Assembly (NCBI RefSeq): GCF_000787575.1
Contig: NW_012236522.1
Location: 806,001-870,000, forward strand
Source: Acytostelium subglobosum LB1
Taxonomy: Eukaryota; Evosea; Eumycetozoa; Acytosteliales; Acytosteliaceae
DNA: 64,000 nucleotides
Direction of reading: 5' to 3'
Positions 3,231 to 45,088 of the stretch are shown piece after piece. Each line of letters opens with the position of its first letter. The stretch's first letter is position 1. Under the pieces are notes generated by a model that saw only the letters and a list, made by a program, of their open reading frames with translations, was not told where the DNA came from and ran no database searches. The position numbers and the translations under genes are program-made.

Positions 3231-6200
3231 ATGGAAAGAGATAATCATGAACATGAACATGAACATGATCATGAAGATGACCATGAAGATGATGACTCAA
3301 ATCTCTCTGAATATATTGAAGTAGATGAGAACTATCTCATTGCAGATGAAGATGAGGATTTGATGTACAATGATGACGATGACGATGACGACCAGGATGA
3401 TGAAGAAGATGAAGACGATGATGAAGATGATGACCAAGGACAAAATATACCATTGGACCCAAATGATCAGGAGTTCATTAGACAGTTGGTTAACAACCCT
3501 CAACAATGGGTAGGGTCCCTTTTCGATCGTTTGGGAGAGAGCTTAAGCTCATTGGTCAGACCACCCGCAGCACCATTGGACGACGAGATGGATGACTATG
3601 TTCCAGAGACATCCGAGCAGGCCAACACAATACGTAGACTCAAGCAGATCAAGGCATTCGACCTCTTTGCCACGCCAACTACAACATTGGACGATCACAA
3701 CACAACAGAGCTATTCAATCATCTTAAAGTCATATCATTGTCCAGCTTTGACCGACCATTCACCAAGTTTGTCCAAGACACAACACTCTATCTCACATCA
3801 GGTCATGTAAGTTCAATCATATTCATTCATTCATTCAATCATTCGCTCATTCAATCATTCAATCAAACTATCAATGTAGTTGGGCAAGAACAGATATGAG
3901 GAGATCAAGAATAATCAGAAGGTACCTGTTTGTGGAAAGGTATTCATCACATCAGAATGGGCCTTCCAATGCAAGCAATGCCAGGAGGACGAGACGAGTA
4001 TACAGTGCGAGAAGTGTTTCAGGAGCAGCAACCATGAAGGCCATGATGTGTTGCGTGTGCGCGTTGGAGGCGGAGGCTGCTGTGACTGCGGTGACAAGGA
4101 CTCGTGGAAAGCCACCGGTTTCTGCACTGAGCATCGCGACATTGTACAATCGGACGAGGAGGCACTTGCCCCCTTGATACAATTTGGACCTGGACACATT
4201 GCCAAGAGCGAGCGACTACTTGGCATCCTACTCGATCTCATCCTACTCGTCCTCGACAAGAAGATCGACAACGACCTCTTTGGCAACAACAAACTCTACT
4301 TCCATTACAGCAACGGCAAGAGGGATACCTTTGATGTTGTAAGTTACCCTCGGGAGGGTCACGCGAGACCTTTGGCGACGCGAGAATCACTCACTCACTC
4401 ATTCCCAATCACATGATTAGTTGATGCCCGATGAGATGTATGGCGTGCTGATCCACAACGACTCAACTAACACATTCGAGGGAGTGTCTGGCGCATTGAA
4501 GTTTGCTTCCAACATTCCAGATATCACTGTTGCGATGTGTGGCGAGTATGCACATTACGTACATATGAATGAACAGTGCGTGGTCTTTGTCGGCACCAAA
4601 GAGCAGTGCAACGTATTCGTCAGCAAAATGGCAGAGAAGATCACATTGAAGTGCACACTATCCAAGCGCTTCAAATTGTTCCCATTCTCCAACCTGGACA
4701 TCCTGCTCAAGATGTTTGCCCATCTCTCTCAGCTCAATTGCTTCAAGCGCATCTTTTGCAACCTTCTCACTCGTCCCACTGGCTCCTTCCACCACAATGA
4801 TGGTCGCACTCTCGACCCACGCGCCAGCCGTCTAGCACGATTCTTTGTCTCCTTCCAGGTGAGTACCTTTACCTGCAGTCAGTCGCATGGCGCTGAGCTA
4901 ACATTCCAACGTTCATCAATCAAACAATGTAGACATTGCCCAGGACAAAGCAGGGCGTGCTCAAGGACTGGCTGTTCTCTTTGACATTCGACAGATCGTT
5001 CAAGGTGGACTTCTCAGTGTGCTATGGACTCATGTATCCAAACATCATTGAGAACTTTGTCAATGACATATTCGATTATGAATACTCCCTACTCTCACTG
5101 TCCATCCAGATCTTCACCATCCCATTCCTGGCCACATCCCTTGCCGAACATCATGGACAACTTGACATCTTCTTCAACTACATACGCGATGCAGTACCCA
5201 AGTATGCCGTCAAGGATAACTTGACACCCCTAACGTACGTTGTCCATTGACATTACCACCACAATCAATCACTCACTCTCTTATTCGATCAATCAGGTTC
5301 ACGAGTGTGTTGGACAGGAAGTACAACTTTGAGAGATTCAAGCTTACACTCTCTGACCTCCAATACCTCATCTCGGTCAAGCCTATCTTCAAGAACATGA
5401 TGTTGAATGATCCAAGAAAGATCACACCACTCCTGCAGTTATTGGCATTGTTCCATCTCTCCCATCCCAACGTTCGTTCGACTGAAGAGTACAAAGAGTC
5501 AAAGTAAGTCAATCATTGATGATCAATTAATCACCGCCACTAACATCCACTCTCACTCACTATAGCACATGGACAGTATTCTTTGTGGACACTATATTCT
5601 TGATCAAGATATTCACATCGATACTCAAGTCATTGATACCACATGGAGTGGTTGGTGAGGATGATGTCGTGGCGTTGACAAAGACAGTCGATATGTTGTG
5701 CTACACAGCATCACAGATGCCAAGACGATGCGATGGCATATCGATCAACCTGCCCGTGCACAGATGTCTTGCCATGGCACTCACGCTGGCCATCCAGCAT
5801 CACGATCAAAACAGATTCACACAGATTGCCAAGTCATTGTGGGAGGATGACGTACTTGCCGAGACACTACTCTACGGCCTGGCCAACATTGACAACCTGA
5901 TCGCCGAGAGCAAGTCACGCATGTGGCTGAGGAATGGCACCTCCCTAGAGTTGCAGATCGTCAACTACACTTCACAAGTCTTCCACCGTCAGTTCACCAT
6001 CGAGCATGACTTTGCCCTCAAACAGGTAAGTGTTTGGGACACGTGGCTGAGAGAGAGAGAGGCATCACATCACTCATACTCTTTCATTCATACTCAAACA
6101 GATAATATGTTGCTCATTGAGGTCTGATCGATTCTTGCGCGTGTACATGAGTCACTTTACAAAGTTGGACAACTTGTTGAAGCAGACGGATATTACTTTG

Positions 6201-8877
6201 GCACTGGACAACAATGAGATTGGTGTACTTTCAAACTTTTATCGATCGCTCATCACTTTGATATCGGACAGGTCATTGGTCGGCCAACAGACTACATTGG
6301 ATATCATAAGATACGATGTGATTCATCAGTTGTTCATCAAGAATCGCACGTTCACCAAGCTAGCCCACCTCGTCGGCATTGAGAAGGGCGTTTCGACCAA
6401 TGCCAAGGACTTGGAGAACGTCCTGAAGCAGGTGGCCACATTCATGCCGCCAACCAAGCTCAGCGAGCAGGGCAAGTTCGCACTCAAACAAGAGTACTAC
6501 AGCAAGTTCAATAAGTACTATTTTGGTTACTCGACCAAGTACCGCGAGAAGGCCGAAGAGATCGTCCAGCAGCACTACAAGACTAAGGGCGCCGCTGCCA
6601 ACGAGGAGTTGCGCAGGGTCCCCATCGAGGCGCTCGCGCCACTCAAGCCACAGTTTGCCGAGATAAGCAATATCTTTGTGTCGCCACTATTGTACCGCAT
6701 CATCTACAACTCGCTCTACCAGTGCGTCGTGCCATCGTTGACTGATGCCACGCCCTTGGACGAGTACGATACGCAGCGTCGTTCAATCGAGAGATCCGAC
6801 GTTATCGATCACATCATTCACATGATGTTCCTCGCACTCGACTCGCACCCCGATCGCATCGACTACATCAAGCAGCAGTGCTCGAACAAGACCCACAACG
6901 AAAGCAACACGTCGATTGTGGACATGCTCATAGCCATCCATGCGGACAGCGCCCGCAAGTACTTCCACCCATCGATTGTACAGCTGCTCAATCGTCTGGA
7001 GGAGTCGAAGCAATTGGAGGCCAACAGCTTGCGCGTTTCGGCGTCCGAGCAAGAGGACATTGAGAAGCACAACCGCATGCTGCAGGCCAAGCGCAAGGTG
7101 TTGGAGCAGTTCAGCACGCAACAACAGAAGTTCTCGATGCTGTTACAGGACGAGGACATCTCGGACGAGGAGGACGCCGCTGGTGAGGTGATCGCCGACA
7201 AGAAGGGCGTGTGCATCCTGTGTCGCGAGGAGAACTACTACAATGACCTCAACAACCCCATTGGATACTTCTGTCTCATGCAGTCGACGCGATTGATGAA
7301 GGTGCTGGAGGAGCGCAATAGCCTCGAGCCCGAGTATGGCATCGTGGACAAGACCGAGCAGGAGCTGTTCGCCAAGCGTGTCCGTCTACAGAAGTTTGGT
7401 AACTACAAGGGTGAGACGGTACTGCAGCTGTGCGGCCACGCCGTCCATGTGGCGTGCTATAACAAGATGGAGAAGGTCTCTGCTCCAGGCAAGCAGTACG
7501 TCGTGTGTCCTCTCTGCCAGTCGTTCTCCAACGCGATCATGCCACCCATACCCAATGGATTCTCAATCTTTGGCGAGCTTAGCCACAGCACACTGTACAA
7601 GGACCCATCGTTCAAGGACTCCAAGCTGCACCAGTGCTTCAAGACCTTTGGCGACTCGATGGCCAAGCATCTGTACGGCAACTCGCAGTCGATCATCCGT
7701 GTGTTCCAGTCAACGCTGGACAACATTGAGTTCATCTCGCGAAGCAACCAGTGGAGCTTGGAGCAGGCGACCACACAGGCAAGCCTGCAGACATTGAGAT
7801 CACTGTTGGATGTCATCTTCATCTACATATCCGTGCTCAAGGGTACGCACTACTCTGAGATTGAGTACGGTAAGGAGTCACCATTCAATCAGCTACTCAA
7901 TCAATTGTTTGTTCCATTGGCCTCGCAGGGACAAATCCAATCACAGACGCACTACATGAGCGCAACTGCAAGTCTGTTTGATCAACACTTCAATGGTGGA
8001 TCATCGGTCGATTCGACAACTACCACGACCACGACCACGACAACGAGCATGTCAACCTCCATTCCAATGTCAACATCACCAGACAAGCCTGCTGCTTTCA
8101 ATGACGTTGACACACAGTTCTACGAACAGACAGTGTTCTTGAGGAAGTTGGCCATCTTGGACAAGGTGTTGGGCGTGTCCAGACATCTTCCAGCCGCATG
8201 CTTGTTGTCCCCCTCCTATCTCACTGGATTGATCGCACACTTGAACTCAAGCGAGCACCGTCAAAAGAGTGTGCATCATCAGTTCACCTCAAAGCTCGAT
8301 CTATCAAAGCTGTCTGGCGACATTATCGAGCGCCAGCCGCCACACTTCAGCCTAGCTCGTCTGCCAGAGAACTACGACGATATATTGCGACCCACTTTCA
8401 AGTGCAAGAAGTGTGATAGCACTCCAGAGAGAGCAGACCGTGCTATCTGTCTACTCTGCAGCAGGATTGTGTGTATTGGATCTCGTTGTTGTGCTGCACA
8501 AAACAACATACCGGAGCTACTCACTCATCCCAAAGTATGTGGCGGCGATGCTTGCATCTTCCTCTTTGTGGAGCACTCCTCGATCATCGTTGTGTACAAC
8601 ACATCCTTTGGCCTTCTTGGCTCACCCTACCTAGACTCTCACGGCGAGGAGGACTCTGGCCTGAGGCGTGGAACACCTTTATTGTAAGTTAGCAGCCTCG
8701 CCATATGATGTGACATCCACTGACTAACATCATGTCTACACACACAGCCTCTCAAAGGAAAGGTACCAACTGATCAATAACATCATATTGAAGAGTGATG
8801 TATCCAAGTCCATAGAGGGAAAGTCCAGGAATCAAATGAATATGATATTCCAACAGAGAGCCAACAACAATATGTAA
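3231..8877 (+). CDS. UBR1-type E3 ubiquitin ligase (N-recognin)
   Basis: Recognises destabilising N-terminal residues and ubiquitinates the protein (N-degron pathway). Eight exons: 3231..3806, 3880..4338, 4421..4858, 4933..5234, 5297..5503, 5566..6025, 6102..8683, 8748..8877, giving 1717 residues with every phase consistent. The N-terminus is a His/Asp/Glu-rich tract. Residues about 210-280 form a UBR box (C.KCF, HEGHD, GGCCDCGD, C-terminal CTEHRD). Residues about 346-430 look like the ClpS-like domain (M..VLIHND). A Cys/His RING lies at about 1185-1290 (CILCRE, CGHAVH, CPLCQ). The Cys-rich C-terminal cap (CKKCDS..CLLCSR) is at about 1580-1700. This order matches UBR1/UBR2. Assignment to UBR1 rather than UBR2 is not meaningful outside animals. 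Confidence 0.93.
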
Positions 8878-20161: not shown

Positions 20162-23100
20162 ATGGAGTTACATCAACAATTACAACCTAACAATAATAAC
20201 AATAACAATAACAATAACAACAACAATAATAATGTTGATAAAGTAAAGAGTTCAATCAAACAATTTGTTGATGCTTCACTCTCAACTGAGCAACGACTTC
20301 ATTGTCTTCACATTGTAATACAATTGTTGTTCAACAACAACAAAGATAACGTTGATAATGATGATTATGATGATGATGATGATGATGACCAGGACAATGA
20401 CAACAAACAAGATGCTAAAGTTGATATTATATTGGATGCACTTGCATGGGTATTGTCTGATGGAAAATGCAATACTTTGGCCGAACTTTCAAGACAGAGC
20501 AGTGGAGGTAGTAACAGTGGCAATCAAAGAACAATGTGCAGTACAGTTTGGAAGACCAATACATTCATTTATAAATGCCAGGATTGCCAAATGGACGAGT
20601 TCTGTGCAATGTGTGTCGACTGCTTTCAAGAGGAGCGACACAAAGGACATCGATATCGCCTCGTTCTCTCTGGACGCGGCTGTTGCGACTGTGGCGATGA
20701 ATCAGCTTGGAGTCCAAGTGGCATGTGTGATCGACATGGGAGACACACCACGCACGCCCAATCACCAAGGGGCGCCCTACCTTCAATTTGGACATCGGTA
20801 ATTGAGCTGTTGGTGACGGCCTTCCTTGAGGAGCCCAAGAGGTCGTACATCCTTGTTCTTACATTGATGATGGTCAAGCTGGTCGAAGCACTTGGCGAGT
20901 GTGTTGCATTGTGCATTGGACAGCGATGGCACGACTTGGGCGAGGGTCCAACTCACTCATACAAGAAGATTGCCGAGTTGCTGATGTGCACGACGAACAT
21001 TACCCCACCAGTGGAGCGCTTGGTCGTGTCCCTGTTCGTCTGCACACAGTTCCGCGAGGACTTGGCAATGTACATCGCGAACAACTATCATTCACTGCAG
21101 GTGTCGTCCAGGAGCAACAAGCACAGCAACCGCAACCTTACCAGCATATCCCTGAGTCTTCAGCTGTTCTCTGTGGACTCGATCGCGAACAAGATCGTGG
21201 CCAGCAATAGCTTGCTCAACATTATAAAATATTTAGTTGAGACGATTGGTGAGGCGGTCAAGCCCGATGGCACGGTGAACATGTCGCACCCCAACCTCAG
21301 GAGCCGGCTCTTCCTTCGTCCGCTCATGGATATTGGCTACATCATCCGCAACAAGTCTGGCTTCCAAAGTCTGTGTGAGAGACCCCAGCAACTCTTTGCC
21401 CTGTTCAAGATCCTTCAACAGACACAAGAGATGGCCGGCAACACCAAGAGAACCAAGCATCATGTGGAGTATGATGATGGTAAGATTGTGTGAATGAGTG
21501 ATTGAGCGAGCTGTCGCCTGCACAAACTCACGCTTCACGCCATCCACAGAGTCATGGGTCACAGGTTTTGTGATTGAGGTATACTTGCGCAAGTTCATCG
21601 AATCCCCTCTCTACAAGCACTTGGTCCAAGCAAAGTCATATGAGTCATCGTCATCATCATCGTCGTCACTTTCAGTCACGACATCAATCAAAGATCATCT
21701 TATACAGCTGTTGGAGACATACTCTAGCCAGAGGATACAATGGAAGACTGGCCTGCGAGGCGAGAATGTACCAGACTTTCGTGTATCAAAGCAGAGCACA
21801 TCGGTACATCTCCCCTTGCATCGCACTCTCTGTCCATTGCTCTATCATCTCACATTGCGACACAATGTTCAACCCAAGGATGTCCTCGCACTCGTCCCCG
21901 ATCCTTCCATCCTGCTCGACCCACTCCTGCGCATTAGGGCATTCAACGCACAAGTGCGCAGTGGTTCGTGGGTACGCAACGGCATGACCATCGTCTCAAT
22001 CGCCCAGAACTACATGCTCTCCTACGCCATCTCATTGAACGACCTCTATCACATGCAGTACCTCATCAGCTGTCTGGCACCAACCCAGTTCTACGCGCAG
22101 CTTCTGGACCGCTTCGAGCTCTCAACATGGTTCACACTCGATGGATCGATTCCTGATGAGAGTGGCGCGACACCTGCACGACACGATAGTGGCGACGGAG
22201 AAAAGGTCAACTTGATCATCGCCGAGGAGATGACCCACCTCATCATCTCATTGGTGTGCGATCGCACTCGTGTTGGCGACGCCACCGATGAGGAACAGGT
22301 GCGACGGCTGATCATACATGTCCTGGCCGCGGGCGGAATGATGCGCCACAGCGAGATATATGATAGACACGCGGAGATTTTCGAGCATTTTGGTGTCTCG
22401 CCACAACAGTTTGATGTGGTACTCGGGTCCGTCTCAGTGTTCCATCCCCCGACATCGACTGAGACCGGACGATATGAGTTGCGGCCAGAGTGTTGGAGTG
22501 AGTGGTCGCCTCACTACCCTCAGTACAGCAAGTCCGAGGTACAGGCATCAATCGAGCGATATCAACAAGTACGCAATCAATCATTGCGCAATGCCCAGAG
22601 TCAACAAGGTGATGCCAATGTGGACTACTCCAAGGATGTACCGGCAATGCCTCAGCTACACACATGCTTCAAGTCATTGGATGACATACTTCACTGTGAC
22701 CTCCTTCATTCGGTCATCTACTCAATCATATATAACAGTCTGTGCAAGTCCCCTCGCGCATCAGATCAGCTACTGTCCAATGCACTATTCCTAATTCGAC
22801 GTATACTACATTCAGTTGCGAGCACAACAACCACCACGACAACCTCTGACGCCTTGAAGTCAGCGGTTGTGCCCAAGCTCGAGCAGATGGACTTTGGTTA
22901 TGATGCACATGACTTCATTCACAATATGTTCATCAATGTCAAGCGAACATCATCATCAAAGAATCCACACTCACTATATGCTCTACTCAGACTGATGGCG
23001 CAGAGCAAAGACTTTGTATCACATCAACAATTGATTGAACATGCAATCATTGGACATCCATTGGTGTTGCAACAGCTATCGATTCTTGGTGATGCTGTGC

Positions 23101-24819
23101 TCCTGCATGGTGTCAAGCGAATGTATGAAGACATTGATGCCACAGCATCCCCATCGACAAAANGACATGGCCAAGAAGAGACAATCGGAGTTGATGCGCA
23201 AGTTCCAAGAGCAACAGAGGCAATTCGTTAGTACTAGTGGCGAGCTCATGTTGGAGGACTACGAGGACGAGGAGGACAACGAGGACGCCGCCGTGGGGTC
23301 TGGCAAGGAACACCAGGACACCATTGAGTATGGCGCATGTGCAATGTGCAAAGCAGACATGGTTCCAAACAAACGACCATTTGGTTACATTGCCTATGTT
23401 CAGAGCAACTCATTGCTGTCACTCATGCCAGGTGCAGCTGGGACCACACCAATCGATCATAGCGATTATGATCAGCCGACTTGTGAGATTCTACGTGATG
23501 TCCACAAAGGACAAAGCTCATTCATCACCTTCTGCTCCCATGCCATGCACATTGAATGCCACTCAATTCTCGTTCGCAACACACCTGGTGCCATCACCAC
23601 AACCACAAAGTTCACATGTCTGGTCTGCAGACGCCTGGCCAACACAATCGTTCCATTCACTCAACAATGTATACTTCCACCGCTGCAGCCAACAAATCAA
23701 TCATTTGCACAATGGATGAAGAGTGATGTGCTTGGGGGCGACACGACTACGCACCATTCCAACGTGATGCCTGGACCCCCAAATCAACGACTTTTAACAA
23801 TGTTGACGGCGACTATATCAATGATGGAGTTGAACAATCGTAACAATGACAATGTCAACATCATGGACGCAGTGTCAGGTCATAACATGATCACGCTACA
23901 GAATCAGATTAGACACACTGTTGAACAACACAACTCTGAAGAAAAGGCTGGTAGAATGGCCTTTGATTCAATCCTACACGACAGACATGTACTCAAACGC
24001 GACATGTTTGGAATGTTCGTCAACCTGTATATTACCAATCATATACTGGCCCAACCAAGAGATATTGGACACCTTGTTAAACTCTGTTTCCACGCCACAC
24101 TACTTCAATCACTTACATTGCTCAAGAGGTACACTGACCTGTCCACACTTCTCCAAAGCATTGTATCACTCAATGATCTTGATCAAGATGTCAAGTCAAT
24201 GTGCCTTCCATTCTTGAGGAGAACAGCCATCCTCATGTCTATTGTCCATGGCTCCAAAGACAAATCATTCAAGATGCAGAGCGGCCCATCCACCGATGAG
24301 TTCAACTCATTGGTAAACATCCTGCATCTCAATGACACAATGTTGCTTGATCAAGACCTGTTGGAATTAATGTATCATCGTTGGATTGAGACAGAGCCAG
24401 CGCCAATACCTGTCCCACTCCGCACACACAGACCATTCGCCTTTGCTTCACTTGGACAAGACTTTCACAAGTTCTACATGGAGACCTCAAGGAAGGCATG
24501 TGGCTGGTGCAACAAGATGCCAGTCGGACTACATGCAGCGGTATGCATGCTCTGTGGATGTCTTCTCTGTCATCGATCTGAGCATGTTCTACACAATGTC
24601 ATGTGTGGCCAAGGCATTGGAGTGATATTTGACTTCCAGAACATCACGGTATGGATACATGCCAACAACGTTCACACCAGAGTATGGGGCACTATCTATC
24701 TCGATCAACATGGCGATCAGGACTATGACAAACGAGGTAATCCAATGCATCTGTCCACATCACGTCTCAATCGATTGATGACTGAGTTGCTCAGTCTATC
24801 TCTTCAGAACATACAATAA
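20162..24819 (+). CDS. UBR3-like UBR-box E3 ubiquitin ligase, with a frame break at an N base
   Basis: Second large UBR-family ligase in the window. Exons are 20162..21479 and 21550..24819. Poly-Asn and poly-Asp tracts open the protein. The UBR box lies at about residues 127-190 (C.DCQMDEFC, GHRYRLV, GRGCCDCGD). A RING-type Cys/His set spans about 23338-23640 (CAMCKAD, CSHAMHIEC, CLVCRR). The C-terminal Cys-rich cap (CGWCNK..CMLCGCLLC) is at about 24490-24600. I see no ClpS-like domain, which fits UBR3 better than UBR1. The frame changes exactly at the single N at 23163. Both sides encode good protein, so an assembly error is likelier than a real mutation. Confidence 0.88.
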
Positions 24820-33122: not shown

Positions 33123-36100
33123 ATGTCAGACCAACAACAACAACAAGGGGCTCCACCTGTATCCCTTGAGAAATCATCAAGGGAGGAACTTGCAGAGTTT
33201 ATAAAGAAACAGGCTGTGCATATTAAGAAGTTGGAATCAGTGTATCAGAGATTGAAGAAGGAGAATGGTGATGCCACAGCAAAGATTGCAAATATGGAGG
33301 AGGAGGCAGTACATCAGAAACAGATAATGGGCACGATGATCAAGTCGCTCGAGGACAAGGTCAAGACCGCCGTGATGGAGAGGGAGCGCATTGAGGAGGA
33401 GCTGCACGCTCGCTTCCAAATCGAGAAGAAGATGTATGTGGAGGAGCGTGCACGTCTACAACAAGCCATCCAACAACATGGTGATATAATGCGCGCGGCT
33501 GCCGAGGAGCGTCAGCGAATGATGCAACAGGCCGACACGCAGCGTGAGTCGTTGCAGCGCGAGATCAACGAGCTTCTCAACAAGGTGCAGGACTTGGAGA
33601 TACAGAACAACACAAGCAGTGTCGACGGCAGCAATGACAACAGCAAGGAGGCCACGGACGATCAGCAACAGGACCGTGGCAGCGACCCATCACACGAACC
33701 ATCGGACGACCAGCAACAAGATCAGGGCAGTGATCCCACCACCAAGACAACCAGCTCGAACGCTGCACATGTCGAAGAGGTCCAGCAACTCAGATCATCA
33801 ATATTCCAGCTCCAACAAGAGATTGATCAACTGTGGAGCAATGTCTCAAGTGCCAACGATGAGCGTGATTCATACAAAGCAGAGGTTGAACGATTGCAGC
33901 TACAACAACAGCAACTGCAACAACATCAACAACACGAGGAGCCTAAGCAGNNCCTGAACAGAAAGAGAATGAGAGAGAGAGAGAGAATGAGGCGAANTTT
34001 GCAAGAGCAAATACACGAGGCAACAGATTCACTCAAATCAAGCAAGAGAGGAGATCAGTCGTTTGACACAGGAGTTGATAGAGAAGGGAGCAGCCTTCAA
34101 TGATGTAGGTGAACAGCTACGCACAAGAGACGATGAACTGAGGCGAACAATGGAGGCACTCACAGGCAGAGATAATGAGAAAAAGAGATTGAGTGATGAT
34201 TTGGCATCTGTACAGGAGTTGCTCAAGACAAAGGATGCACAGTTACAACAGCTACAACAGACAATGGAAGAGACAGAACGAGAAGTTGAGCGGGTGACTG
34301 GCGAGCTGGCCAAGCTGGCCCAGACGATCAAGGCTAAGGACGACCAACTGTCGGCGCTCCAGACACAGCAACGCAGCCGCGAGGAGGAGGTCAACACATT
34401 GCTGGCGACCAAGGTATCGGCAAGCGAGCACCTGGAGGAGGAAGAGAAGAAGCTGAACGAGAAGGTACTCAAGCTCAAGAACCTGCTGGTGGTCGCACAG
34501 AAGCATGTCTCAGAGCAGAAGAAACAGATCGCCGACAAGAACACCGAGACAACTGCGTTGAACGACCGGATCAAGGAGCTGGGCGACACGATCAATGAAC
34601 TAAGCGCCAAGGTCAAGGAGCTGGAGGTGTGTCGCGACGAGAGCGAGTCCGTGGCCAATGAGTTCCACGAGATGAAACGCAACTATGACTACAACCTGCA
34701 AAGGATCAAGATATTGGACAGTCAGCTGGCCAGCACCAATGCCAATCTGAAACAGGCACAGGATGAGTACAATGACTATCGCATCAAGGTTCATCACGCA
34801 CTAAAGCAGAAGCAGGAGGTGCAGCAGGATCACATGGACGAGATTGATGTCAGTGCCGCTATCGAGGAGGCACTGGCCAAGCAGCAGCAACAGTACGCAG
34901 AGGACAAACAGCAACTGGCCGCCAAGGTCGAGGAGTTAACTGGCGAGGTGGCACGATTGACCGATGAGCTGAGCGGGCTCCAGGAGCGAATGGATGGCGA
35001 ACAAGCCGCACATCAGAAACAGGTTGGCGCACTTCAGAAAGAGAGTCAGGCGCATGTAGATACGATCGAGGACCTGAACACTCAGCTGGCAACACTGCGA
35101 GCAGCACCTGCCAACAGCAACAAAGAGGACCAGATTGATTATGAGAAGGGTATGTCACGCAACTGACTTGAGAGAGTCAACCAACACACATGACTGACCC
35201 TTGCAACTATGTACATAGAGCTGAGGCAACGCGATGAGAGGATGATTGAGTTGCAGTCACAGTTGAACTTCTTCAAGAGGAATAGTAACTCATTGATGCG
35301 AGAGAAGGATAGATTGATTGAGGAGCAAAAGCATTCAATTCAAAGTCTCAAAACAGAGGTGGATAAACTAAGACCTATCAATCTCAATGAAACAGATGAT
35401 GATCATGCTCACAATGATAACAACCTTGTTGTTGGCAACAATGGAGTCCATGATGGCAATTCAGGAATAAGTGGTGGTGGCGATAGGACATTGGAATCCA
35501 ATTCATCGACGTCAACTGGTGAGACAAGACAACTTGTCAATCCAGAGGAGTTGGACTCCAAGTTCAGCATCGAACATCTCTTGCCATCATCATCCAATGT
35601 ACTCCCGCCTCGTGAGGACACATTCTCATCACTGGAACTGCCTCAATCACTACCTCTCGAAGTCGAGAGAATACTAAATGAATATGCAAGAGTATGTCAT
35701 ACAAGCTATGATGATTGGACATGGCACATATTAACTCAATCAATCATTCAGTCCCAGGCATCTCGAGACGAAGAGTTACGCAAGGCCAATGCTCAAGCAA
35801 GTCTGTTGAAACAACTGTTGGCAGAGAGTGAGAAGATGGAGCAGAAGCATTTTGAACAGGAGAAGTTACTCAAGGAGGAGATAAGGAAGCTTGAACGTTC
35901 CAGTTCCAGAGAGGGATCAAACCTTGAGTATGGACAACAACAACAAGAGCAATCAATGCATTGACACTTGACTGACACCACCTCTTACCTCAATCAATCA
36001 ATCACATCAAATAGATATGTTAAGAATATATTGGTAAAGTTCTTGGAGAAGGAGGACGAGTCATTGATACCAGTGCTGTCGACTTTGATGCAGTTTACAC

Positions 36101-37567: not shown

Positions 37568-38155
37568 TCAAAATTTATGTTTTACTATTCGATCCTTGTT
37601 TGAGTTAGTTCCTCTGTCTTGTTGTTGTTTGATATACTTTGGCGTGGGACTAGGAAGATAGACTGGTGCAAGGAAGTAGGAGTTTCCATCTCGTCCAGTG
37701 AATGGTACCAGGTAAGGTGTACCATATTTGAAGTCGCCAGGCTCATCCTTGATTTGAAACAATAAGTGGCCGTACTTCAGGTTTGGCACACCAAGGCACC
37801 AGACCACGACTTGGTAGTCCATTCGGAGTTTGAGGGAATCATTCAGCTTCTCTGTGGGCTCGATATTCGTAACTGTACCTGCTTGGCACGCAGGAAGTCC
37901 AAAACAAGGTTGGAACTGAGGGTCGTTGTCAAAGAACAAACCAGCATGGCAACTGTTGATCAACACTGTCGTGTTGACTCTAGGATTTAGGGGGATGTGC
38001 GATTGGATTAATGTACCACCTGTATTTGCGTCGGGTAAATCAAATAGGTAATCACCCTTATTGTTCATTCCATGGCCAATGTAGAAGATGTAGTTGACAT
38101 CACCATCACTTGGCTGCCATGAATTCAACACGGCAATCACATTGTCGCTGGATGG
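37568..38155 (-). CDS. Caspase-like (C14) protease domain, 5' end uncertain
   Basis: About 190 codons are open. The catalytic pair of the caspase/metacaspase fold is visible: His in FYIGHG and Cys in LINSCHAG, about 65 residues apart. No ATG precedes the His in frame, and a stop lies upstream at about 38173. So either the N-terminus comes from another exon or the gene is truncated. One splice option uses an acceptor at about 38152 and a phase-2 donor inside the neighbouring 83-residue frame. The tail is Lys/Gln-rich and ends in a basic KHKF. It resembles the degenerate caspase-like part at 44.1-44.9 kb. Function is unknown. Confidence 0.6.
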   Translation of the reverse strand, partial: PSSDNVIAVLNSWQPSDGDVNYIFYIGHGMNNKGDYLFDLPDANTGGTLIQSHIPLNPRVNTTVLINSCHAGLFFDNDPQFQPCFGLPACQAGTVTNIEPTEKLNDSLKLRMDYQVVVWCLGVPNLKYGHLLFQIKDEPGDFKYGTPYLVPFTGRDGNSYFLAPVYLPSPTPKYIKQQQDRGTNSNKDRIVKHKF

Positions 38156-38184
38156 CGACAGATTGGGAGTTGCTTACTGTTCGA

Positions 38185-40955: not shown

Positions 40956-41482
40956 TTTCAGCAGCACTTCAGCGATGTCTGCAGGACTGATGGTGATAGG
41001 TGACCCCCAACACACTTATGATGGCCTCAAATACTTCCTCTCTCCTGAGCTCTACAAGATGCTTCTTCGTATCTAAAAGTCTATCATGCATCATCCACAA
41101 NTGAGTACATGTATTCATTTGCACCAATGTTATTATTATTTTTTTCCTCAAAGNTATTTTAATTAAGAAGTTATGTTGTAATTTCCAAATCCCTATTAAT
41201 ATTATTTTAGTACTTTTCCATTATTTGTATTAACTTAATTAACTAAGTAACTATAAAAATATTNATATAAGTTTTTAATAAGTATTGAAACTTCTGACAG
41301 TGAGAAATGAAGTCGCGATAGCGACGCAATGTGAGCGCCAGCGACAAAGCAGCGCCAGCACGAGCCATCCACACACATTGAGGAGGAGTCATATTCTTGG
41401 GTCTATGGACCAAAGAGAACAAGACAAATTGTTCTTAATAACATATGATTGATGGATGGCAACAAAGTATGTGTTGTGGCAC
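40956..41482. other. Low-quality intergenic stretch with N bases
   Basis: N bases at 41101, 41153 and 41264 interrupt AT-rich sequence. A small palindrome (GTCGC..GCGAC, about 41313-41326) and GCGCCAGC repeats follow. This looks like joined contig ends. No gene is supported. Confidence 0.4.
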
Positions 41483-41742
41483 CTGATCGCCTAGGGTCTG
41501 GACGACGGCAGATACAGTCGCCGCCACCTCTGTTGGATATGGGTCGCCTCGCTCAACAGTTCGCATTGGCAGTGAGTGTGCGCTGAATAGGAGGACTGGC
41601 TGGGCAGCCTCACCAATTAGATTGAGTCGCTTGGCTTCATTGGCAAAGTGTGTCAAGGCCTGTTGGATCTTTGAGGCAACAGTTGAGACAAAGCCCTCGT
41701 GCAATGGCCATCTATCAATGATGGACCAATCAAACTTGGACT
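41483..41742 (-). pseudogene. Isolated ferrochelatase exon
   Basis: A 260-nt frame bounded by AG and GT sites encodes a central piece of ferrochelatase, the last heme-synthesis enzyme: SIIDRWPLHEGF, then LLFSAHSLPMRTV..GDPYPTEVAATV. The catalytic His lies in FSAHSLP. Neither the N-terminal half nor the C-terminal segment (the WQSK.GP and TSDH motifs) can be found on either side. Upstream, the 0.79 kb repeat element begins within 70 bp. It is therefore a duplicated or stranded fragment, unless the neighbouring N-containing joins have separated it from the rest of the gene. Confidence 0.75.
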
Positions 41743-41806
41743 CTAGAAAATATATAGTTGGCCTTTGAGAATACACCTTCTGACGGAACTGACGAAGCAG
41801 GCACTA

Positions 41807-41839
41807 CCAGAGTACGGAATCCGGTGGTACGGTTACGAC
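41807..41839 (+). repeat. Left terminal inverted repeat of the 0.79 kb element
   Basis: Pairs with 42567..42600; both copies carry AGAGTACGGAATCCGG, one on each strand. Confidence 0.7.
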
Positions 41840-42566
41840 CGAGACCCTTTTCGACCGAATACTATCAACCGGTGACTTTGCCAACCGCACCGGAACCGGA
41901 CCAGATCAAAAAATGGATACCGAAGACAACCGTCAGGTTCCCCCAGACTTGTGGGTGACGTCTCAGGCTCATGCGCATTTATGAGGGGTGAAACCCCCCT
42001 ACCCCCCCAATATTTCAACCCGCGTCCTTTCAATAATCGTAATTCATCTTGTATCTAGTGATGTATCCTGTATCTGTATCTTGTTGGTTGTTTCTATTAA
42101 CTCGTTTATTATTTATATAGGGATTACTGGTCTATGATCTGTACTGCACTCATTATCCTGAATCCTAAACACAGTTTGGGTACAAGATATATACAAGATA
42201 CAAGATCAGGATACTAGATACAGATAAAGGATACAGGATACATGATACAAGAGGAAGAACTTTGTGTCTGTGCAAAAAACCGGTAAGTAGTGGGTAGTGC
42301 ACCACATGTATCATTACAAATAAATAAGAATGAATGAATGAATGAGAGTGAATGAATAACAATGAATGACAATGACTAAGATTAATGAATGAAAGAATGA
42401 GTGATTACAACACCCCAGTACAGTACCCGATCAAAACAACAGATCGAAATCAATTAAAATAAAAATCTAGATATAACCAGGTCAGTGGGTAGGCTAGATA
42501 CGGAGTCTTAGTCTACCGGATTGGATAAGATCAAACCGGTATTCAATCAAAAAAATTTTCCTCAAA

Positions 42567-42600
42567 CCGTAACCGTACCGACCGGATTCCGTACTCTGGG
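42567..42600 (-). repeat. Right terminal inverted repeat of the 0.79 kb element
   Basis: Inverse of 41807..41839, differing by one inserted base and a terminal C. Confidence 0.7.
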
Positions 42601-42644
42601 TATGCCCGTCACATTCCAAGGAAATGCAGGTCTGCTGATGTGGC

Positions 42645-44872
42645 ATCAGTGATGTCGATGGCAAAGTGTACTTTGCTCGCAACTATGATGTGAGAAGTAC
42701 ATCAGTCAATAGCACCCTTCAAATGATCGCTGACATCATTTCCATCACCGCTGGTACCCTCGTTGTCATCTTCACCGGAGCACCCAGTCAAGACTTTGCC
42801 ATCTCGGACAACCTTGCCTTCGCAATGACCACATGTAGTGCCAAGGTGACTATCAACCCAATCACTTCATCATCGTCATATGCATTGATTGGACCAAAGG
42901 GATCACCATCTGGCTCAGTACCCGAGATCCTCTCATACACAGGACCAAAACTTCAAGAGACATTTCAAACCTGTCAAGCCATATGTCCACATCAAGGCTG
43001 CATCCAATGCTGTATGTATCCACACACTCATTCACTCGATCAATCAATCCATCAATCTCTAACCTAACCTCCTCAATCAATCAGGTACCAACAGTTACAC
43101 CAGAACCTTATATCCTCATCAATGGACTACCAGTCTCTGGTACTTTTGGACCTGGATTGAATGTTGTGGCCATCAATCCCACCAACAGCACGGTGATCAT
43201 GTCAAACAACTATGACACAACTAATGCTGCAACTCAACCTCGACCAAGTATCCATTTCACTTCTGATATCAAAGCCCTGCCCCAAGGCACCATAGTTGCA
43301 TTGTCAACTCTTGGAGCGGCCGGCACTTACCTGGGCACTGCCCGAGACACCATCACCAACTACCTTGGTTCCAAGTTGATGACGTCCTTCACATCCAATC
43401 AATCATACTGTATCATCTCAACTGTTGGTCTCAATCTCACAGGTGATACGAGAGTGATGAGTGAGTGTATTGCATCAGCCAGTTCATACACAGCATGTGA
43501 CCTTCGATTCCCATTGAAGTCACTCTACACCAACACTGGTCTGACCTTCTGTGTCACCTCTGGACAACAGAGTCGGATCATGGTCAACAATCAATCCGCC
43601 CTGCCCACGACCACGAATGGAATCAACCTTGTCACGGTTGATGCTGCCAGTGGAGCCGCCAGCCCATACTACTTCAACACATCTGGATCGGATGCTCAAT
43701 GCAGGTGTTGTACAACTTCATTCAAGCACTCCCAGTTGGTCAGTTTGTACTGATCTCGGTTCAGCAATCGATGGGAACACCTGCGACACCACAGTCCAAT
43801 CGTTACCAGATGATGGCTTTGACAATGATTGGTGCATGTCAGTTTGTTTGTGTGGGACCAGAGTCTACCTACTCAGTGATAGGCACTCGTGGTGCATGTC
43901 CTGGATCAGCATTCGAATCATTCAATGGCAGGAATATCCAGGTGTGCGTTGGATCATGGGAGCCAGTGACTCCGGCATCCCTGGTGAGCAGCGCACAGAA
44001 TGGATTGATCGACGATGAAGCACCACTCTTCACCGTGCCTATGTTGACCAACATGTATCAACATCAAACACCAATGGCAATCATACCAAGCAACAAGGCA
44101 GTTGGCAACATCTTCAGAGCTGAGCCAGCATACAATTCGACACTTCCCCATCCAGCTGGTAGTGTCACCAAAGCTCTCTTGGTAGGGTTGTCATACTACA
44201 ACACAGTCGAACAGCCCAATCAGAGCATCGAGTTCCAAATCCAGGAGCATTCTCGAGCATTGGTCCAAGGTGGATATGTCCTGCCACAGAACATCCGAAT
44301 CCTCACTGAGGACCTAACAGAAGTCTCCAACGATGGAACATATGTCAACGGACCATCATGGTTATGCATCAGGAATCAGATCATCAACTGGCGGAGACAG
44401 AGTCTTCTTGAGTGGTGTGCCAATGCTACAGGTCCATCAACATCAATCATCATGTGGCAATGAGTACCATTACCGTTACACTACCGACACCTGCATGTCG
44501 TACCCATGGATGACCACCCAACCACGTTGGGTCATTTGGGCATCAGACAGTGGTACTGGAGTGCCATTGTATCAGTTCACTGATCAAGAAGGTGGTGATG
44601 GACCGAGCAGATACTTTTTGTCACTGAACAAACATGAACCTGATTGGACATTGATTGGTGTGATTGGTCATGTGTCACCAGTGCAGACCAACAAGTGCAA
44701 CAATCCAATCCATCGATATAGTTGCAAGTCATTTGTCAACAATGCCAACCTATTTGCATTTGATTCAGAGGCACCTCGCACTCATGATCACGTAAATGAA
44801 GTATGGGTGGATAATGGTGTTGTATTCTATGCCATCGATCCTGTCAATCTGGAAAAGGAGCAACCGATTTAA
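42645..44872 (+). pseudogene. ILEI/FAM3-like repeat gene fused to a degenerate caspase-like domain, frame-broken
   Basis: Three ILEI-like (FAM3 family) units are visible. Unit 1 (42650-43000) has FARNYDV..GTLVVIF..YALIGPKG and lacks its start. Unit 2 (43085-43500) runs from YILINGLPVSGTFGPGLNVVAINP to ALPQGTIVALSTLG. Unit 3 (43570-43970) has NGINLVTVDAASG, then ALPVGQFVLIS and SAFESFNGRNIQVC. A caspase-like region follows (KALLVGLSYYNT, NIRILTEDLTE, RWVIWASDSGTG). There the usual GHG His and SCH Cys are not recognisable. One intron (43014..43084) is clear. Frame changes occur near 42950, 43695 and 44455. Given nearby N bases, errors in assembly cannot be excluded. The 5' end abuts the repeat element. 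Confidence 0.65.
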
Positions 44873-44896
44873 TTTCCAAGTGCCAGGATCACATCA

Positions 44897-45088
44897 ATGA
44901 TGGAGGAGTGGCATGATGATAACTCTAATGGTGCTGGTTCATTCTATACTTCTGATGATGAGACAGAGTCGATTGTAGTTGGAACCGATAATGATACAAC
45001 TTCGCAACAGGCCAAGATTGATCAACTCCAAAAAGAACTTGATGAGTTGAAGCGATCACTAATGAAGGCAAAGAATCCGATGACATAA
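44897..45088 (+). CDS. Hypothetical small acidic coiled-coil protein
   Basis: A 63-residue frame from ATG to TAA. The N-terminal half is acidic (SDDETES). The C-terminal half is a short heptad-like coiled coil (IDQLQKELDELKRSLMKAK). It follows the ILEI/caspase-like pseudogene by 24 bp and could be part of its remains or an independent small gene. No family is recognised. Confidence 0.35.
   Translation: MMEEWHDDNSNGAGSFYTSDDETESIVVGTDNDTTSQQAKIDQLQKELDELKRSLMKAKNPMT

What the first reader, a model, noticed from the sequence alone, without database searches (positions are those of the whole stretch)
42645..44872. ILEI/FAM3-like domains fused to a caspase-like domain
Three tandem units align well by eye with the ILEI domain of animal FAM3 secreted factors (GLNVVAINP and PQGTIVAL cores). 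They are followed by a caspase/metacaspase-like region whose catalytic His and Cys are not recognisable. I know of no described ILEI-caspase architecture. If intact relatives exist, this could be a novel secreted-domain/protease or pseudoprotease system in amoebae.
Basis: partly seen in the sequence, partly recalled or inferred. Interest (0 to 1): 0.75.

Follow-up and report, generated by a model that had tools for sequence, protein, structure and literature searches.

The report
Broken amoeba gene, three ILEI domains
A damaged gene, probably from a social amoeba, encodes three domains of the kind found in secreted animal FAM3 proteins, but the protease-like part claimed to follow them could not be confirmed and its end looks somewhat like a putative sugar-binding domain.

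Summary
Pfam confirms three tandem ILEI (PF15711) domains: 35.2, 64.2 and 22.2 bits as open frames; 37.5 and 38.9 for the first and third when read across a frame break (cut-off 27). The copy is damaged: four frame changes, an in-frame TAA, and an abrupt 5' start beside a 793-bp inverted-repeat element.

The caspase part is not supported. Pfam and NCBIfam find nothing, PDB search finds no caspase, and profiles of Peptidase_C14 and C25 built here find no match; hhalign to C14 is marginal (probability 2.5%). The end of the gene resembles DUF5648 repeats: first of 198 window ORFs, 0 of 200 shuffles, yet below Pfam's threshold.

Best reading: a decayed or badly sequenced copy of a multi-domain, probably secreted binding protein. 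The GlcNAc-contact residues of POMGnT1 are absent from all three domains, so any ligand is unknown.

ILEI with a gingipain-type peptidase is not unprecedented: of 46 Bacteroidota ILEI ORFs examined, 43 also carry Peptidase_C25, upstream. The window's one C14-like ORF is another gene, 37571-38173, minus strand.

The parts
41807..42599 (.). 793-bp element with terminal inverted repeats of about 32 bp; TA on the left and GTA on the right, compatible with a TA target-site duplication; the ILEI reading frame begins abruptly beside it
   Evidence: I1 arms; ends match at 31 of 32 aligned positions; flanks printed
42602..42905 (+). ILEI domain 1, frame break at about 42637 (Pfam match from about 42629; 42602-42628 by likeness to domain 2)
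   Evidence: Pfam PF15711 1.8e-8 in the open frame; 3.3e-9, profile 2-90, when read across the break
43012..43084 (+). probable intron (GTATGT...CAG) between domains 1 and 2
   Evidence: read from sequence in three frames; inference, no transcript data
43154..43429 (+). ILEI domain 2, intact in one frame
   Evidence: Pfam PF15711 1.6e-17, 64.2 bits; phmmer aligns it with FAM3C of the PDB, E=0.064
43616..43896 (+). ILEI domain 3, frame break at about 43699
   Evidence: Pfam 2e-4, 22.2 bits, in the open frame; 1.3e-9, profile 1-90, read across the break
   Evidence: no Pfam or NCBIfam family; no caspase among 8 PDB matches; C14 profile score -1.9; hhalign probability about 2.5%
44528..44839 (+). 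DUF5648-like repeats (weak), frame 2
   Evidence: best of 805 ORFs, E=0.028; hhalign probability 39.7%, 0 of 200 shuffles, first of 198 ORFs; weaker with a single-unit profile (E=3.4; 1 of 200 shuffles); no Pfam match
44870..44872 (+). in-frame TAA
44873..45085 (+). same frame continues: acidic stretch and coiled-coil-like tail, possibly the C terminus
   Evidence: open frame with positive codon score (5.9); only sub-threshold Pfam matches

Best explanation
It is a 5'-truncated, frame-broken copy of a gene, probably of a dictyostelid, for a multi-domain protein with three FAM3/ILEI-type domains followed by an unidentified segment and a DUF5648-like repeat region. The intact form most likely acts as an extracellular or endomembrane binding protein: the ILEI modules and the C-terminal region each present a binding surface, and several weak contacts add up to avid binding of a glycan or surface ligand. 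Shown: the three ILEI domains and the damage. Weakly supported: the DUF5648-like end. Inferred: secretion (the N terminus is missing), ligand binding, and that an intact gene exists.
For: ILEI. DUF5648-like end; four of four stretches tested, from 4 of the 79 loci behind the profile, are PF18885. ILEI-type domains bind sugars in POMGnT1, FAM3C, FAM3A and C. elegans Fam3L2 (PMC9802357, passages). DUF5648 is proposed to take part in glycan recognition (PMC12853789, one passage) and its fold is described in GH70 enzymes (PMC11299179, one passage). From 44387 to 44869 frame 2 is the only one of six without stops and has the best codon score of the six.
Against: The three GlcNAc-contact positions of POMGnT1 (R129, D179, R207, mapped through FAM3A by spacing) are kept in 0 of 9 cases in D1-D3, so the known sugar site is lost; Fam3L1, which lacks two of them, did not bind (PMC9802357). 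DUF5648 is below Pfam's reporting limit. The codon score of the C-terminal region is low (3.5; known coding windows run from 1.2, lowest tenth 10.2) and the codon-usage path does not call coding after 44332. No relative was found in the collections searched: plasmids, phages, IMG/VR. The acidic, coiled-coil-like tail could suggest a cytoplasmic end.
Confidence: 0.45

Rival explanations
1. One reading: the ILEI domains are followed by a degenerate caspase-like domain without catalytic His and Cys, a pseudoprotease.
For: KALLVGLSYYN...RALVQGGYVLPQNIRILTED resembles the first strand, helix and LTD segment of C14 by eye; hhalign places this same stretch at the start of the profile, and 0 of 60 and 1 of 200 shuffles score as high. 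ILEI with Peptidase_C25 is common in Bacteroidota.
Against: Own C14 profile gives -1.9 bits, while its 22 members left out in turn score 48.1-172.6. hhalign probability 2.5-2.6%; two apparently unrelated window ORFs score as high. No Pfam match at E<=10, no C25 signal. No GHG, and no Cys motif of the caspase kind in an open frame.
Confidence: 0.12
2. The parts do not belong to one gene: the ILEI gene ends near 44400 and 44390-45085 is the rest of a neighbouring gene, joined by decay or assembly.
For: A frame break lies between them; codon usage weakens after 44332; the 5' side also looks like a junction, at a repeat element with a ferrochelatase fragment beyond it.
Against: The two open frames overlap (43642-44463 and 44318-44872), as expected of one frame broken by an indel.
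Confidence: 0.25
3. The gene is intact in the living organism and the breaks are sequencing or assembly errors (compatible with the best explanation's domain reading).
For: Other window genes also show frame changes, two of them near Ns (23163; 33951-33997); open frames are long on both sides of most breaks.
Against: No N falls in 42600-45088; of the breaks only the one near 42950 lies by a run of four equal bases; the 5' end also stops at an element.
Confidence: 0.4

Closest known systems
FAM3A/FAM3C (ILEI), POMGnT1 stem, C. elegans FAMP-1 (PF15711)
   Same: Same ILEI domain by Pfam; tandem domains are known (two in FAMP-1, PMC9802357, passages).
   Different: Three copies; the R/D/R sugar-contact residues are absent; a different C-terminal part; host not an animal.
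Bacteroidota PorU/PorU2-like proteins with Peptidase_C25 and ILEI
   Same: ILEI domain in a multi-domain protein; a KG...GSVPE-like tail found in D1, D3 and 10 of 46 bacterial domains.
   Different: C25 precedes ILEI; no C25 signal in the window; no DUF5648 in the 11 bacterial ORFs scanned with Pfam.
DUF5648 (PF18885) repeats
   Same: PLY-R/Q ... W-x-x-x-G-V-x-x-Y/H-V periodicity over two units.
   Different: GDHFYTT core absent; below Pfam's threshold.
Caspase/metacaspase Peptidase_C14 (PF00656)
   Same: Only an ALLVGLSYYN...LTED-like stretch.
   Different: No profile match, no catalytic motifs.

Membership tests
ILEI (PF15711) | Match over the curated cut-off of 27 bits | tested here: met
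   37.5, 64.2 and 38.9 bits (D1 and D3 read across one break each; D3 in its open frame alone gives 22.2)
ILEI (PF15711) | Sugar-contact residues R129/D179/R207 of POMGnT1 (feature of FAM3/POMGnT1, not of the Pfam family as such) | tested here: not met
   0 of 9 positions; mapping of positions via FAM3A by spacing is inferred
ILEI (PF15711) | Secreted or lumenal | not testable with these tools
   N terminus missing
Peptidase_C14 (caspase/metacaspase) | Profile match | tested here: not met
   hhalign marginal
Peptidase_C14 (caspase/metacaspase) | Catalytic His (GHG) and Cys | tested here: not met
   no GHG in three plus frames of 43897-44869; one SCQSG at 44839 in frame 1, which is full of stops there
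Peptidase_C25 | Profile match | tested here: not met
DUF5648 (PF18885) | Match over the curated cut-off of 25 bits | tested here: not met
   no Pfam match at E<=10
DUF5648 (PF18885) | Repeat pattern shared beyond chance | tested here: inconclusive
   hhalign 27.7 against a best shuffle of 20.1 and best other ORF of 15.9; with a single-unit profile 1 of 200 shuffles reaches it and hmmsearch gives E=3.4
Any fold | Predicted structure of 43960-44869 | tested here: inconclusive
   AlphaFold2 without an alignment, mean pLDDT 31.5, not usable

The most novel reading that the evidence does not exclude
Amoebae encode secreted proteins in which several ILEI domains precede a catalytically dead clan CD (caspase-fold) domain, an independent echo of the Bacteroidota C25-ILEI proteins; ILEI would then be a recurrent partner of caspase-fold domains.
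Probability: 0.08. Interest if true: 0.6.

Novelty: new member of a known kind. Interest (0 to 1): 0.3.

Why it matters
ILEI/FAM3 domains are studied as animal secreted factors; a multi-ILEI protein in an amoeba would help show what the domain did outside animals. A side result may matter more: 43 of 46 Bacteroidota ILEI ORFs examined also carry Peptidase_C25, two tested ones resemble PorU/PorU2 sortases, and many keep the sugar-contact residues (24, 34 and 32 of 46 at the three positions). PorU attaches cargo to anionic lipopolysaccharide in Porphyromonas gingivalis (PMC8545088, title and abstract), so such an ILEI domain might hold that sugar (inference).

Tried and rejected
Rejected: caspase (C14) and gingipain (C25) assignment of 44170-44869. 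Taken as noise: a phmmer match of D3 to ricin B chain (E=0.09) and of the claimed caspase region to designed repeat filaments (E=6.4e-4 for the whole sequence, no stretch passing on its own; E=0.015). D1 and D3 alone found no FAM3 chain. Kinship between this region and the caspase-like ORF at 37571-38173, which looked alike by eye: shuffles reach the observed score in 712, 247 and 116 of 1000 for the three pairs tried (BLASTP E=0.35). Relatives: plasmids (D2; C-terminal part) and phages (D2 only) gave nothing better than E=0.2; IMG/VR (three queries) none. The single genome-contig scan went to the DUF5648 pattern, so that collection was not scanned with the window's own protein; the metagenome collection was not open. 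Two C14 profiles had some loci on the wrong strand and were discarded; one search is the corrected one. The ILEI profile contains D1-D3 themselves and is no independent test.

Literature searches: 'ILEI domain'+Dictyostelium, FAM3+ILEI+domain+Dictyostelium, ILEI+metacaspase, 'Interleukin-like EMT inducer'+Pfam, metacaspase+paracaspase+Dictyostelium+Polysphondylium, DUF5648, 'ILEI domain', POMGnT1+'stem domain'+FAM3, PorU2+'type IX secretion', ILEI/gingipain/PorU/FAM3C (two of four terms; 15 of 152 listed). I saw no title or abstract start that describes either architecture; only listings were seen, except passages of PMC9802357, PMC12853789, PMC11299179, PMC8478517 and PMC8545088.

Full report
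Setting. The window is 64 kb, G+C 38-52% in 2-kb steps, without tRNA or Rfam hits. Its genes look eukaryotic: two UBR-type ubiquitin ligases, HEAT repeats, kelch repeats and FNIP repeats, the last pointing to a dictyostelid (recalled knowledge, not tested). No whole genome is held for the window, so orthologues in its own genome could not be sought.

The ILEI part. Pfam finds PF15711 in three successive open frames at 1.8e-8, 1.6e-17 and 2e-4. Reading D1 and D3 across one frame break each with an X raises them to 3.3e-9 (37.5 bits) and 1.3e-9 (38.9 bits), over almost the whole profile, so all three pass the cut-off of 27 bits. PDB search with D2 alone returns FAM3C (E=0.064) and cell-surface hyaluronidase (0.23), and a profile of the three returns FAM3C and FAM3A (0.045, 0.047): consistent but weak. 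D1 and D3 alone find no FAM3 chain.

The damage. Three-frame reading places frame changes at about 42637, 42950, 43699 and 44386, with a TAA at 44870-44872. The codon-usage path saw only the changes near 42957 and 43679 and stopped calling coding at 44332; the others rest on reading and homology. The breaks at 42637 and 43699 lie inside ILEI domains, so they are indels. The window holds seven Ns in six runs, none here. Elsewhere, frame changes near 23123 and 34046 lie close to Ns. Pseudogene and sequencing error both remain possible.

The 5' junction. A 793-bp element with inverted ends (31 of 32 aligned positions) occupies 41807-42599. To its left is a ferrochelatase fragment on the minus strand (PF00762, 9.1e-18, profile 145-227 of 317): the open frame runs to 41803 and the Pfam match ends about 60 bases from the element, so the N-terminal part of that gene is missing on this side. 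To its right the Pfam match of ILEI D1 begins about 30 bases from the element, with no room for a signal peptide. Both genes thus appear cut at the element; whether by rearrangement or by a misjoin through a repeat cannot be told.

The claimed caspase. No Pfam family apart from ILEI is found in the read-through at E<=10 and nothing in NCBIfam; PDB search lists 8 chains, none a caspase. I built a C14 profile from 22 Pfam-found loci in seven of twelve prokaryote genomes. Left out in turn, members score 48.1-172.6 bits; the window's read-through scores -1.9. hhalign gives 19.8-20.1 (probability 2.5-2.6%) over 47 columns, ALLVGLSYYN to LTED. Shuffles reach it in 0 of 60 and 1 of 200; four window ORFs reach it, of 89 and of 198: the caspase-like minus-strand ORF, this region's own ORF, and two apparently unrelated ones. 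A remote relation is therefore not excluded, but the evidence does not carry the name. A C25 profile gives no hit for the read-through. Motif search in the three plus frames of 43897-44869 finds no GHG; a lone SCQSG at 44839 is in a frame full of stops. AlphaFold2 without relatives failed (mean pLDDT 31.5).

The C-terminal end. The string VPLYQF...WTLIGVIGHVSP...NPIHRY...WVDNGVVFYAIDP recalled DUF5648. A pattern scan gave 79 bacterial and archaeal loci with 99 matches; not all are DUF5648, so a script kept those of the right pattern (85 distinct units, 37 longer stretches). Four stretches tested, from 4 of the 79 loci, are PF18885. With the longer profile the window's ORF is the best of 805 (E=0.028); in hhalign it scores 27.7 against 20.1 for the best of 200 shuffles and 15.9 for the best other ORF of 198. 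With the single-unit profile the result is weaker (E=3.4; 1 of 200 shuffles). I call it DUF5648-like, not a member.

Function. ILEI-type domains bind GlcNAc and other sugars in POMGnT1, FAM3C and Fam3L2, through R129, D179 and R207 in POMGnT1 (PMC9802357, passages). DUF5648 is proposed to recognise glycans (PMC12853789, one passage). A multi-site binding protein is thus the simplest reading, but the contact residues are absent in all three domains: 0 of 9. In the same paper Fam3L1, which lacks two of them, did not bind, so sugar binding by D1-D3 is open.

ILEI elsewhere. PF15711 matches at E<=0.001 in 0 of 12 first genomes, and in 2 of 282, 2 of 291 (1 over the cut-off), 9 of 301 and 76 of 296 (65 over the cut-off) genomes of the phyla of G001, G002, G003 and G007; it rang in 0 of 14 control genomes. 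G001 is the genome of a Nannocystis, G002 a Microcystis MAG, G003 a Chloroflexi MAG and G007 a Mucilaginibacter MAG, so the last phylum is Bacteroidota. From the 46 best-scoring of its 76 genomes I took the ORF of the best match: 43 of 46 hold Peptidase_C25 upstream of ILEI by a profile made from five of them; the other three are a phosphatidylserine decarboxylase fusion, a 232-aa ORF and one cut by a contig end. Pfam itself was run on five of the 43 and confirms C25 in all five. NCBIfam places the two tested near PorU and PorU2, below the curated cut-offs. At the contact positions 24 and 32 of 46 have Arg and 34 of 46 an acidic residue (alignment-dependent). ILEI with a gingipain-type peptidase is therefore a real bacterial architecture, in the opposite order. 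The searches listed under Tried and rejected showed no paper on it.

Verdict. Real ILEI repeats in a damaged gene; caspase claim unsupported; modest interest.

Noticed in passing
window 37571-38173, minus strand: ORF with YIGHG and INSCHAG motifs; the only one of 806 sequences over the inclusion limit with my C14 profile (E=3.4e-4; hhalign 48.95). Pfam gives nothing at E<=5. Probably a caspase-like gene; the coding frame changes just upstream, between 38193 and 38169.
   Followed up: partly
L132, L133, L135, L139, L142-L154, L156-L164, L166-L182 (unnamed Bacteroidota genomes): 43 of 46 ILEI ORFs examined also carry Peptidase_C25; over the 46, the FAM3/POMGnT1 sugar-contact positions hold Arg in 24, an acidic residue in 34 and Arg in 32. 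ILEI may recognise the sugar that such sortases join to cargo (inference).
   Followed up: partly
L134, L138, L141, L136: ILEI together with phosphatidylserine decarboxylase, YfhO, DUF6311, and MopE-type repeats in single bacterial ORFs.
   Followed up: no
window 41435-42602: Inverted-repeat element between a ferrochelatase gene that lacks its N-terminal part and an ILEI gene that lacks its 5' end: rearrangement or misassembly.
   Followed up: partly
window 6147-8687 and 20162-24819: Two UBR-type E3 ligase genes on the same strand about 11.5 kb apart; the second changes frame near the N at 23163.
   Followed up: no
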